From a virus: DNA of 24,503 bases. Both the position numbers and the translations under genes were made by a program. The notes beneath the pieces are model-generated. The model was not told where the DNA came from. It was given only the letters and a program-made list of their open reading frames with translations, and searched no databases. This document shows, in pieces, positions 21,717-24,503 of this stretch. Each line of letters begins with the position of its first letter. Within the stretch, counting starts at the first letter, position 1. The DNA lies in the IMG/VR virus record IMGVR_UViG_3300028810_000010, positions 1 to 24,503 of that record; one strand, 5' to 3'.

Positions 21717-22082
21717 ATGAGCGAACCTTTCTACCTCGGAGCCTTCAGTAGTGACGGCTTTGCGTGGATGGAGTGGGACGGCAGCAACGAGGACGCAATC
21801 GCCGAGTGGCTCAACGCCCAACCCGTCCCCAATCTCCCCAACACGTGGACGTACACCATCGACGACGGAATTCTCGTATTTACCGGAGAGCCCTACGCCG
21901 GTCAGCAACCGCCCGCGTCAGTTGGTGATATGGTGTCGCTCATGGTCTACGCCCACGGGTCCAGCGTCGGTGTCATGCCAGCCGAAGCGGCAACGCGGTA
22001 CTGGCGCACCCCCGATCCGACTGGACGACCCATCGAGTTAGAAGACATACAAGGGAGCTCCCCCGATGCCGATGTGGAATGA
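21717..22082 (+). CDS. Unknown protein before the endolysin (121 aa)
   Basis: AGGAG precedes ATG 21717. The protein starts MSEPFYLGAFSSDGFAWMEW and continues GSNEDAIAEWLNAQPVPNLP, then TWTYTIDDGILVFTGEPY and an acidic tail. It is probably a small soluble alpha/beta protein. It could be a tail accessory or a lysis-associated protein, judging only by position. No family is recognised. It overlaps the endolysin start by 17 bases. Confidence 0.65.
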   Translation: MSEPFYLGAFSSDGFAWMEWDGSNEDAIAEWLNAQPVPNLPNTWTYTIDDGILVFTGEPYAGQQPPASVGDMVSLMVYAHGSSVGVMPAEAATRYWRTPDPTGRPIELEDIQGSSPDADVE

Positions 22083-23085
22083 TCTCGACCGAGCAGTGGC
22101 CGCGTCCGGCCTGGTTGTCAAAGTCGGATACAGCGGCTGGAAGACCTACGGCCACGGAACCCCCGGGCCGGTGGAGGGAGTAGTTTGTCACCACACAGCG
22201 GGTCCCCCGACGGGCGACACCCCCAGTCTCAATACCTGCGTCTACGGGCGCAGCGATCTGCCTGGACCGCTCTGCAACCTATTCCTCTCGCGCAGCGGGC
22301 AAGTCTACCTGGTAGCGGCTGGAATCGGTTACCACGCTGGGAACACCGTGGTTCCGTGGGGCGACAACAACTCCGGCATCGGCATCGAAGCCGAAGCAAC
22401 CGGCGTCGACCCCTGGCCTAAGGCTCAATACGACGCGTATGCCGCGCTGTGCAAGTCACTACAGGATTATTACCGACTCCCAGGCGCGCACGTCGCCGGA
22501 CACAAGGAGGTCTGTTCGCCCCCGGGTCGAAAGATCGACCCCAACTTCGATATGAACGCATTCCGCACCGCCGTCAGTAAGGGAGGTGGGGTTCCTCCCG
22601 CTCCCCAGGCCCCAGCCGACTTCGCAGATGATGAGGAAAACCAGATGCTGATCTTCTTCGACACAATCACCACCAATCCCGGCAGTGCAGCTATCCCCGA
22701 GGTGCCGCCCAACCCGGGCGATCCCGACGCCGAGCCGCCCGTTCCGCCGACCCCCGGGTCTCCGGGCAAGCCCGCTGTTCCGCCCAGCTACCGCTACGAC
22801 TTCCACGGCCAGCGCACCTGCGAGGCCGGGGGCGGCTCGAACATCGCCCAGTCGGCGTGGGCCTGCTTCTCCACGGCATGGGGTAGCTGCCAGGTGTACA
22901 TCGCGGCCAACGACGGCAAGGGTCGGACCTGGAACCTGCTCGGCGCACCGGGCAAGCCTGCCGGGGTCAAGAACAACAGCCAAATCCCCTTCCCTCTCCC
23001 GGCTGGCGCACGAATGGTGACGATCGAGGGGAACCGCGATAACCCCGGCACGGTTATCGCTTGCGATGTCTACAACCTACGTTGA
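22066..23085 (+). CDS. Endolysin: N-acetylmuramoyl-L-alanine amidase (lysin A)
   Basis: A 339-aa protein. Residues 36-165 are an Amidase_2/PGRP domain: GVVCHHTAG (His 42/43), GIGYHAGN (His 90), GIGIEAEATG, and HVAGHKEVCSPPGRKIDP (His 146, Asp 159), which cuts the link between MurNAc and the stem peptide. Residues 172-240 are a Pro-rich linker (IPEVPPNPGDPDAEPPVPP). Residues 241-339 form a domain I do not recognise (four Cys, GNRDNPGTVIACDVYNLR at the end), probably cell-wall binding. ATG 22066 is preceded by AAGGGAG, part of a GGGAGCTCCC palindrome. It starts the lysis module. Confidence 0.92.
   Translation: MPMWNDLDRAVAASGLVVKVGYSGWKTYGHGTPGPVEGVVCHHTAGPPTGDTPSLNTCVYGRSDLPGPLCNLFLSRSGQVYLVAAGIGYHAGNTVVPWGDNNSGIGIEAEATGVDPWPKAQYDAYAALCKSLQDYYRLPGAHVAGHKEVCSPPGRKIDPNFDMNAFRTAVSKGGGVPPAPQAPADFADDEENQMLIFFDTITTNPGSAAIPEVPPNPGDPDAEPPVPPTPGSPGKPAVPPSYRYDFHGQRTCEAGGGSNIAQSAWACFSTAWGSCQVYIAANDGKGRTWNLLGAPGKPAGVKNNSQIPFPLPAGARMVTIEGNRDNPGTVIACDVYNLR
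22633..22647 (+). promoter_or_regulatory. Candidate internal translation start in the endolysin
   Basis: GAGGA (22633-22637) lies 7 bases before an in-frame ATG (22645-22647, Met 194). Initiation there would yield a 146-aa protein beginning MLIFFDTITTNPG and comprising the Pro-rich linker and the unrecognised C-terminal domain. The spacing is at the optimum for translation, and the site sits exactly at the end of the catalytic part. Confidence 0.45.
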
Positions 23086-23251
23086 ACGCTGCGTAATCGA
23101 GAGTGGGAGAAGTATTCCACGTGAGTGCGACACACCTCGCACTTACATTCACCTTCCCCCATCCGAAGCCGTCACGCTGCTTTCCGCTTTCGGAGTCGCG
23201 ACGGTCGTCTGCCTGGCACTATTTGTAGCGGTGTGGTACCTGGCTCGCTGA
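23066..23251 (+). CDS. Small single-pass membrane protein of the lysis module (61 aa)
   Basis: ATG 23066 overlaps the endolysin end by 20 bases. A polar N-terminal half (MSTTYVERCVIESGRSIPRE) is followed by one hydrophobic helix near the C-terminus (VTLLSAFGVATVVCLALFVA) and WYLAR. One-helix proteins downstream of lysin A in actinophages are often holin partners or pinholin-like. No good Shine-Dalgarno is seen. The minus-strand gene 23172-23633 overlaps its last 80 bases, in a non-aligned codon register. Confidence 0.5.
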   Translation: MSTTYVERCVIESGRSIPRECDTPRTYIHLPPSEAVTLLSAFGVATVVCLALFVAVWYLAR

Positions 23252-23633
23252 GGCGTACATGGGACGCGGAATATATGTTATCTGCCTGACGGTGATAGCC
23301 CTGACTGCGATGAGCTTGCTCGCCAATCCAGTCGTAGTCAGTGATCCAGTCGCCCTTTACAGCTGCCTTACGATCGCGGCGACGTGTGTCGGCCTGCTGG
23401 CTGGCGGGCACATCAACTTGCAGATCGTCCGCACGAAGCACGAGCTCCCAAAAGAAAACCATGATGGAGACCAAAAATAGTCCCATCGTCAACATGCCGA
23501 GGATGCCTCCAGCCAGCCCGGATAGCGCGACGACGCTCCCCACCAACAGCGCGAGGAACATCCCGACGAGCGAGCCGACCAGGATGAAAAACCCTTTGAC
23601 GTGACCGCGTCGGTCGGCGCTGTGCCTACCCAC
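23172..23633 (-). CDS. Two-helix membrane protein, leftward operon (153 aa)
   Basis: The N-terminal part has two hydrophobic helices (GFFILVGSLVGMFLALLVGS and GILGMLTMGLFLVSIMVFFW) and a long hydrophilic tail (QADTRRRDRKAAVKGDWITD). The non-overlapped part (23481-23633) has about 80% GC at third positions, strong evidence of coding on this strand; the rest is antisense to the holin-like gene. GTG 23633 overlaps the stop of the preceding leftward gene by 8 bases; GTG 23681 is an alternative. If the tail is real, convergent genes share about 310 bases. Function unknown. Confidence 0.55.
   Translation of the reverse strand: MGRHSADRRGHVKGFFILVGSLVGMFLALLVGSVVALSGLAGGILGMLTMGLFLVSIMVFFWELVLRADDLQVDVPASQQADTRRRDRKAAVKGDWITDYDWIGEQAHRSQGYHRQADNIYSASHVRLSEPGTTPLQIVPGRRPSRLRKRKAA
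23259..23480 (+). CDS. Holin-like two-helix protein (73 aa)
   Basis: The sequence has two hydrophobic helices (YVICLTVIALTAMSLLAN and ALYSCLTIAATCVGLLAG) separated by PVVVSDPV, and a charged hydrophilic tail (RTKHELPKENHDGDQK), a classic class II holin layout next to an endolysin. GAGG lies 6 bases before ATG 23259. However, it lies entirely inside the minus-strand gene 23172-23633 with codons in register, where hydrophobic and hydrophilic residues mirror each other. Third-position GC is about 66% here against about 60% for the opposite frame, which favours this strand only slightly. Confidence 0.55.
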   Translation: MGRGIYVICLTVIALTAMSLLANPVVVSDPVALYSCLTIAATCVGLLAGGHINLQIVRTKHELPKENHDGDQK

Positions 23634-23823
23634 GTCGGAACTGCGGGCATTCGTCGCAGTCAACGCATTCGGTTCCCGCACGATAGTGTTCGTGAGCGTC
23701 TCGTCCGTGACCGCACACGCAATACGGACCCTGCCGCCAGTGCAAATATCGGCCGACAGCTATCGCCAGTCCGAACATGCACGCCAACCCGATGAAGATA
23801 TACCCTACTACACCTACAGACAT
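23626..23823 (-). CDS. Single-pass membrane protein with Cys/His zinc motif (65 aa)
   Basis: The ATG at 23821-23823 is preceded on the minus strand by GGAGGG. One N-terminal helix (GVVGYIFIGLACMFGLAIAV, residues 5-24) is followed by YLHWRQGP and a dense motif C35-x-C37-G-H39...H44-x-H46...C53-x2-C56-x2-C59. C-x-C-G-H-x4-H-x-H followed by C-x2-C-x2-C recurs in small actinobacterial and phage proteins, probably as a zinc ribbon. Basic residues after the helix suggest a cytoplasmic domain. Middle gene of the leftward operon. Confidence 0.75.
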   Translation of the reverse strand: MSVGVVGYIFIGLACMFGLAIAVGRYLHWRQGPYCVCGHGRDAHEHYRAGTECVDCDECPQFRRG

Positions 23824-23878
23824 GCCAGCCCTCCATTCGAGTGAGCCTCGTTTGGCAGACTGGCAGACTGCGTCGGTG

Positions 23879-24370
23879 TTACTTGGCGTCGCCGCCGTCG
23901 TACACCCAGACCACGCCACCGTGCGTGGAGAACTTTTGGCCATCCGTGAGCGTGAGGTTGCTCGGACCGTCGATGTTGATTACCTTGACGATCTGGCCGT
24001 CCGGCCCGTAGACGGTCGCGTAGGCCACCGATCCGTCTGGGTGGGTACCGTCGGTGTGGTAGTGACCCGTGGGGATGTTACCCGGAGTGTGACCCACCTC
24101 GTAGTCGTTGCCGTCCGTGACGCCCGGAACCGCGATGACCTTGGGCTCCTCCGGTGCGGCCTGAACGGGAGCGACAGCCGGAGGCTGCGCGAGGACCGTA
24201 CCGGGCGACGACGTCGCGGCAGTCGGAGTGGGCGATGAGTTGAAGCCGCCGATCGCCAGGCCGATGATGAACATCACGGCTCCAACGATCACGTAGGACC
24301 AGATCGGTCCGCGCTCGCGTGCGGCTGTTTGGGGAGCTACCTGCGTGTGCTGTCCCATTTCGTTTTCCAT
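23879..24370 (-). CDS. Membrane-anchored extracellular protein, leftward operon (163 aa)
   Basis: The ATG at 24368-24370 follows the SAS-like leader by two bases. A 22-residue cytoplasmic N-terminus (ending ARERGPIW) leads into one helix (SYVIVGAVMFIIGLAIGG), an Ala/Pro/Thr linker (47-85), and a domain at 86-160 with DYEVGHTPGNIPTGHYHTDG and GPSNLTLTDGQKFSTHGGVV. This is reminiscent of a secreted actinobacterial module that typically reads G-x-Y-x-V-G...I-x-P-G-x-Y-x-T, but without its Cys pair; the likeness is by eye. No catalytic residues stand out. First gene of the leftward unit. Confidence 0.8.
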   Translation of the reverse strand: MENEMGQHTQVAPQTAARERGPIWSYVIVGAVMFIIGLAIGGFNSSPTPTAATSSPGTVLAQPPAVAPVQAAPEEPKVIAVPGVTDGNDYEVGHTPGNIPTGHYHTDGTHPDGSVAYATVYGPDGQIVKVINIDGPSNLTLTDGQKFSTHGGVVWVYDGGDAK

Positions 24371-24372
24371 TC

Positions 24373-24387
24373 GGGGATTCCCTTCCC
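24373..24387 (-). promoter_or_regulatory. SAS-like leader element on the minus strand
   Basis: Read on the minus strand: GGGAAGGGAATCCCC, then GA and ATG 24370. It has the same GGGAAGGGA core and C-run as the plus-strand copies at 156, 1219 and 5411, with two extra bases. It shows that the leftward operon shares the regulatory module of the small-gene array. Confidence 0.72.
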
Positions 24388-24402
24388 TCGGTGTGTAATA
24401 CA

Positions 24403-24432
24403 ATTATATCACATCCAACACACTCCCCTCAA
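24403..24432 (-). promoter_or_regulatory. Promoter of the leftward operon: extended -10 (TGA-TATAAT)
   Basis: On the minus strand, consensus TATAAT (24408-24403) with the TGA extension and TTGAGG (24432-24427) 18 bases upstream. The 15-mer ATGTGATATAATTGT is identical to 1171-1185. The expected start near 24396 leaves about 25 nt of leader carrying the SAS-like element. Confidence 0.75.
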
Positions 24433-24502
24433 TGTGTGGCTTGCCACTCCCGTCAAATGCCACGGCCAGCCAGTGGCGGCGCGCGTGTTTGAAAAAGTGT
24501 GG
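24404..24502 (-). CDS. C-terminal fragment of a leftward gene (partial)
   Basis: A minus-strand frame enters from the right edge, reading PHFFKHARRHWLAVAFDGSG and ending EGSVLDVI at a TAA (24406-24404) that is part of the TATAAT of the leftward promoter. Composition is protein-like, and the gene-end/promoter fusion matches 1174 and 5390. A second minus frame is also open and ends at the TGA of the same extended -10, but reads less like a protein. Family not recognisable. Confidence 0.4.
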   Translation of the reverse strand, partial: PHFFKHARRHWLAVAFDGSGKPHIEGSVLDVI

Positions 24503-24503
24503 C

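What the first reader, a model, noticed from the sequence alone, without database searches (positions are those of the whole stretch)
23172..24432. Leftward three-gene membrane operon sharing the SAS-type control
Next to the lysis genes, a leftward unit encodes three predicted membrane proteins: an anchored extracellular domain (163 aa), a one-helix zinc-motif protein (65 aa) and a two-helix protein (153 aa). It has the same promoter core and leader as the small-gene array. An externally exposed domain plus two inner-membrane partners could be a surface-exclusion or envelope-remodelling system. I do not know a described system of this composition.
Basis: inference. Interest (0 to 1): 0.6.

Follow-up and report, generated by a model that had tools for sequence, protein, structure and literature searches.

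The report
Phage operon making a surface-exposed protein
A group of uncultured phages, probably infecting actinobacteria, carries a conserved three-gene membrane operon whose outward-facing protein uses a bacterial surface domain (known from M. tuberculosis Rv1352 and Rv1906c) that is swapped between otherwise near-identical phages, most likely to keep other phages out of the infected cell.

Summary
A leftward operon at 23172-24432 encodes g1 (163 aa, one helix, outside domain), g2 (65 aa, one helix, zinc motif) and g3 (153 aa, helix hairpin), from one promoter and 13-bp leader shared with the left-end small-gene array. Orthologues lie in eight IMG/VR contigs (two hold only part of the operon); three further contigs keep the architecture next to an endolysin as little as 55% identical. 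Coding is under purifying selection.

Three things are new. (1) The g1 outside domain is a divergent, cysteine-less Rv1352/Rv1906c domain (NF053833), confirmed by syntenic relatives scoring up to 62.7 bits. (2) In isolated temperate phages (Sparky, Farewell, Madraxi) proteins with this domain are encoded in the repressor/integrase region; in integrase-bearing viral contigs they cluster near the integrase (19 of 28 within 5 kb, 7.7 expected). (3) g1 alone is swapped: window and L007 are 97-100% identical on both sides but 68-88% in g1.

This supports, but does not prove, an exclusion or surface-specificity system. No function was measured. Verdict: real, undescribed operon; interpretation partly supported.

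The parts
24403..24432 (-). promoter TTGAGG-18-TATAAT, extended -10
   Evidence: only promoter-like site in 22000-24503; conserved in L003, L004, L007, L009; a TATAAT promoter with the same leader precedes the operon in L181
24375..24387 (-). 13-bp leader (SAS-type) just before the g1 start
   Evidence: same element at 156, 1219, 5411
24421..24456 (-). direct repeat TTGASGGGAGTG x2, 24 bp apart (24421-24432 and 24445-24456), one copy over the -35; possible regulator site
   Evidence: conserved in four relatives; the repeat alone is not above chance in the window
23879..24370 (-). g1: TM-anchored protein with outside C-terminal Rv1352/Rv1906c-like domain
23906..24118 (-). g1 outside domain (residues 85-155), predicted all-beta
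23626..23823 (-). g2: one helix, then CxCGHxxDAHEHYRxGTECxxC zinc-type motif, predicted cytoplasmic
23172..23633 (-). g3: helix hairpin with predicted cytoplasmic tail; tail antisense to lysis-region genes
23259..23480 (+). 73-aa two-helix ORF antisense to g3; probable holin-like lysis gene
   Evidence: weak but position-matched similarity to ORFs beside the endolysin in L163/L167 (1 of 1000 class-preserving shuffles as good)
23066..23251 (+). 61-aa one-helix ORF after the endolysin, overlaps the g3 end by 80 bp
   Evidence: conserved in L003, L004 and weakly in L181
22066..23085 (+). endolysin (Amidase_2), convergent neighbour

Best explanation
The operon is an accessory envelope module, made from its own host-type promoter separately from the late genes. 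g1 is held in the cell membrane by one helix and shows a bacterial-type surface domain on a flexible proline-rich stalk; g2 and g3 are its small inner-membrane partners with cytoplasmic tails. The domain binds or mimics a host surface component used by incoming phages, so that the infected (or carrier) cell is closed to further phages or to their DNA; exchange of g1 alleles changes which phages are shut out. Shown: genes, conservation, shared control, domain homology, g1 swapping, location of related proteins in lysogeny regions. Predicted: topology. Inferred: surface display, timing, interaction of the three proteins, exclusion.
For: Operon architecture conserved down to 55% endolysin identity. 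Domain homology: NF053833 over cut-off in L003, L004, L009, L162 62.7 and L181 38.3 bits at the syntenic gene; an independent bacterial profile scores all five g1 proteins above 10,000 shuffles, hhalign 94%. Same architecture, anchor plus P/T-rich stalk plus domain, in the Sparky, prophi79-1 and prophiGD03-1 proteins and in most of the 76 viral loci examined. Location beside repressor/integrase in Sparky, Farewell, Madraxi, prophiGD03-1; 19 of 28 within 5 kb of an integrase, 7.7 expected. g1-only allelic replacement; L007 and L009 share the anchor but not the domain; L163 has a different outside domain on a similar anchor while the second protein and g3 stay 90% and 72% identical to L162. Precedents: an early phage lipoprotein, T5 Llp, excludes superinfection (PMC9586334); a prophage membrane protein (Charlie) blocks DNA injection (PMC6426606).
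Against: No function is known to me for the domain; bacteria use it for themselves (27 of 148 sampled genomes of one class). This phage group shows no tyrosine integrase (records may be fragments), so the lysogeny-region argument is indirect. No PADLOC match. Integrase proximity in IMG/VR may partly reflect host flanks of prophage calls. dN/dS of g1 is below 1 in every comparison, so diversity is not shown to be adaptive.
Confidence: 0.4

Rival explanations
1. Envelope remodelling or protection for the phage's own benefit (stabilising wall or membrane, altering permeability) without excluding other phages.
For: The domain is a chromosomal surface-type domain in actinobacteria; the same phage group has a second secreted bacterial-type protein (AMIN-like PF24837, L003 2491-3063).
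Against: Allelic exchange limited to g1 and placement of relatives in the repressor/integrase region fit a specificity role better.
Confidence: 0.25
2. Lysis control: g2/g3 act on the holins, or the leftward transcript is antisense to the lysis genes and delays them.
For: The operon stays next to the endolysin in all lineages; g3 overlaps lysis-region ORFs on the other strand by 80 to about 300 bp, and no terminator-like site was found on that strand before the far side of the endolysin.
Against: The operon points against the late genes and has its own host-type promoter; a large outside domain is not needed for this; convergent gene ends in compact genomes overlap often.
Confidence: 0.15
3. 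Plain mosaic phage accessory genes without a joint function; g1 is a moron and g2/g3 hitch-hike.
For: g1-type proteins occur without recognised g2/g3 in mycobacteriophages; in the L162 group a different Cys-containing protein without a helix takes the place of g2; g2 carries a stop codon in one contig (L015).
Against: Architecture kept in four lineages, overlapping g2/g3 stop and start, purifying selection on each gene.
Confidence: 0.2

Closest known systems
Rv1352/Rv1906c domain proteins (NCBIfam NF053833)
   Same: Sequence homology of the outside domain, mostly C-terminal position, predicted anchored or secreted, linker
   Different: Window copy lacks the two cysteines and scores 22.1 bits, under the 25-bit cut-off; it is in an operon with g2/g3
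Sparky gp46, Farewell, prophi79-1 gp67, prophiGD03-1 gp2, Madraxi gp47
   Same: Phage-encoded Rv1352/Rv1906c-domain proteins; TM anchor and stalk seen for Sparky, prophi79-1 and prophiGD03-1; hypothetical or 'membrane protein' in the records
   Different: Most lie in a repressor/integrase region, with no recognised g2 or g3
T5 Llp superinfection exclusion lipoprotein (PMC9586334)
   Same: Small anchored envelope protein of a phage; works-like comparison only
   Different: No sequence relation tested; Llp is a lipoprotein acting on FhuA in a Gram-negative
Actinophage prophage defence genes (CarolAnn gp43/gp44, Charlie membrane protein; PMC6426606)
   Same: Membrane proteins of actinophages that block other phages
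   Different: Different proteins; lysogenic expression there, unknown here
Start-associated sequences of cluster K mycobacteriophages (PMC3203893)
   Same: 13-bp purine-rich element before start codons of many small genes
   Different: GGGAAGGGAACCC differs from GGGATAGGAGCCC at 3 positions; the 17-bp extended inverted repeat was not searched for

Membership tests
Rv1352/Rv1906c domain (NF053833) | score over the curated cut-off of 25 bits | tested here: inconclusive
   window 22.1 and L007 20.2 bits (below); L003, L004, L009 28-30.6, L181 38.3, L162 62.7 (above)
Rv1352/Rv1906c domain (NF053833) | homology to bacterial members | tested here: met
   independent profile above 10,000 shuffles; hhalign probability 94%
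Rv1352/Rv1906c domain (NF053833) | pair of conserved cysteines (seen in most bacterial members; not a stated criterion of the family) | tested here: not met
   absent in the window domain and in L162; present in L181 and Sparky. Hence described as a divergent relative, not a typical member
Superinfection exclusion system | blocks a second infection | not testable with these tools
   needs plating or adsorption assays
Superinfection exclusion system | envelope location | tested here: inconclusive
   predicted from sequence only
Att-linked prophage defence | located between or beside repressor and integrase | tested here: inconclusive
   relatives yes; window group has no tyrosine integrase in nine records, all possible fragments; serine integrases not searched there
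Known anti-phage defence systems (PADLOC-DB) | profile match | tested here: not met
   no family at E <= 0.01 for seven proteins
Cluster K SAS | GGGATAGGAGCCC with up to two deviations | tested here: not met
   commonest copy has three deviations, the operon copy four (criterion from PMC3203893)
Lysis cassette | co-transcribed with the endolysin | tested here: not met
   opposite strand, own promoter; transcripts themselves not measured

The most novel reading that the evidence does not exclude
A phage surface-specificity system: a membrane platform (g2/g3-type proteins) that displays an exchangeable outside domain borrowed from actinobacterial surface proteins, used for exclusion, and whose transcript also runs antisense into the lysis genes, tying the state of the cell surface to lysis timing.
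Probability: 0.12. Interest if true: 0.85.

Novelty: new variant of a known kind. Interest (0 to 1): 0.58.

Why it matters
The Rv1352/Rv1906c domain is common in actinobacteria and includes studied M. tuberculosis antigens, yet I found no assigned function for it. A phage operon in which this domain is the exchangeable part gives a direct way to look for its ligand, and points to a class of anchored phage proteins in mycobacteriophages that could be tested for exclusion in M. smegmatis.

Tried and rejected
No DNA match of the window in 50,697 phage records; g1 and g3 gave no match by tblastn and g2 only chance-level ones. No bacterial genome with g1. Pfam and PHROGs gave nothing convincing for the three proteins (one weak PHROGs hit for g2 of L004, phrog_13419, E 0.003). 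PDB sequence search: nothing. First structure model, five sequences only: poor (pLDDT 49). Fold comparison of the better model: Foldseek found no PDB match at E <= 0.001 and VIA-align Z was at most 6, tied over unrelated beta folds; among viral models the top rows were Mycobacterium phage Aggie lipoprotein and Rhodococcus phage ChewyVIII (TM 0.67-0.69 by query length, E 0.005), consistent but weak. I first doubted the 73-aa ORF opposite g3 as an antisense artefact (absent in L003/L004); similarity to ORFs at the same place in L163/L167 made it more likely a real lysis gene. The repeat TTGASGGGAGTG is not above chance on its own; only its conservation argues for it.

Full report
What is there. 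On the minus strand, one promoter (TTGAGG-18-TATAAT, extended -10, 24432-24403) and a short leader precede g1 (24370-23879), g2 (23823-23626) and g3 (23633-23172, GTG start overlapping the g2 stop). Hydropathy gives one helix in g1 and g2 and a hairpin in g3; charges suggest that only the g1 C-terminal part is outside. The promoter core and the 13-bp leader recur before rightward genes of the small-gene array at the left end. The region upstream of g1 is strongly conserved in four relatives (alignment including the first codons: 87% mean column identity), and a far relative (L181) has a TATAAT promoter with the leader GGGAAGGGAATCCC at the same place.

Relatives. IMG/VR gave the same operon in L002 (100% at g1), L006, L007, L008, L003 and L004, with L009 and L015 cut by contig ends. 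All frames are under purifying selection: pairwise dN/dS 0.02-0.37 where divergence allows. Searching with the endolysin and with the nearby lyase brought in farther phages: L181 (endolysin 55% identical) has anchored g1, g2 with the zinc motif, and g3; L162 and L163 have anchored g1, a different 111-aa Cys-containing protein in place of g2, and a longer g3; L167 shows the last two before its contig ends. Among contigs that span the locus I found no counterexample, but the sample is about a dozen contigs, some near-duplicates.

The outside domain. Three g1 orthologues pass the cut-off of NF053833 (Rv1352/Rv1906c domain); the window copy falls just short (22.1 of 25 bits). A profile built only from 32 bacterial domains found by the genome search scores all five g1 proteins above 10,000 composition-matched shuffles, and profile-profile comparison gives 94%. 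The syntenic g1 proteins of L162 and L181 score 62.7 and 38.3 bits, and L162 shares with the window the short insertion VGxxPGxIxxG and the lack of cysteines, which links the window copy to the family. With a deep alignment the domain is predicted as seven beta strands (pLDDT 81, pTM 0.72); fold searches gave no clear function.

Where else phages carry the domain. In named phages: Sparky and Farewell (between immunity repressor and tyrosine integrase), prophiGD03-1 (beside the integrase), prophi79-1, and Madraxi ('membrane protein', in the arm with repressor and serine integrase). Sparky (reading upstream of the annotated start), prophi79-1 and prophiGD03-1 have anchor, stalk and domain in the same order as g1. 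In 28 contigs with a detected integrase, 19 domain genes lie within 5 kb of it against 7.7 expected for random placement with circular distance, and 15 against 6.2 with linear distance. Prophage calls with host flanks could inflate this; the isolated phages are free of that doubt.

Swapping of g1. Window and L007 (also L006) are 97-100% identical, with one 60-base block at 93%, for kilobases on both sides, including promoter, g2, g3, lysis and tail genes, yet only 68-88% in g1. L007 and L009 share the g1 anchor (dS 0.10) but not the domain (dS 0.70, dN 0.23). L162 and L163 keep a similar anchor and stalk (60%), a 90% identical second protein and 72% identical g3, but their outside domains are 21% identical and L163 has no family match. 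So the outside domain is the exchangeable part. dN/dS stays below 1, so selection for diversity is not proven.

Overlap with lysis genes. The latter is absent in L003/L004 but resembles ORFs at the same place in L163/L167 (best score equalled by 1 of 1000 shuffles). In the L162 group the g3 tail shows little protein-level constraint (dN/dS about 0.7-1.2), while the opposite ORFs are somewhat better kept (about 0.4-0.6). The hairpin is the secure part of g3.

Mechanism. Exclusion or surface-specificity is my first choice (0.4), then envelope remodelling, unrelated accessory genes, and lysis control. The choice rests on domain type, company kept by relatives, and exchange of the exposed part; none of it is a measurement. 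Known precedents are T5 Llp (PMC9586334) and actinophage membrane proteins that block other phages (PMC6426606). Membership in any exclusion family cannot be tested here, and no PADLOC model matches.

Host. An actinobacterial host is inferred from the domain, the g2 motif, whose bacterial matches were all Actinomycetota, and the AMIN-like protein; it was not determined.

Noticed in passing
L003:531-6963; L002:243-3467: Next to the operon the relatives carry a PurZ-like adenylosuccinate synthetase (phrog_1211, 287 bits), a PurB-like lyase, dUTPase and a family A DNA polymerase (families tested on L003), and a small ORF of unassigned family: a likely 2-aminoadenine (Z) genome set.
   Followed up: partly
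L003:2491-3063: Secreted protein with an AMIN-like domain (PF24837, E 1e-31), a second bacterial-type envelope protein in this phage group.
   Followed up: partly
window 23259-23480: 73-aa two-helix ORF fully antisense to g3, probably a holin: a possible case of two overlapping genes both in use.
   Followed up: partly
L073:5953-6234 (Sparky gp46); L077 (Farewell 46/47): Sparky gp46 looks annotated too short: upstream codons in frame encode an anchor and stalk. In Farewell the annotated genes lie on the opposite strand of the domain.
   Followed up: partly
L015:1-153: The codon for tryptophan 29 of g2 reads TAG in this contig; mutation or sequencing error not resolved.
   Followed up: no
L163:7313-7879: g1 with a different outside domain without any family match, on an anchor like that of L162.
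   Followed up: partly
window 24421-24456: Direct repeat TTGASGGGAGTG, 24 bp apart, one copy over the -35; conserved in four relatives.
   Followed up: partly
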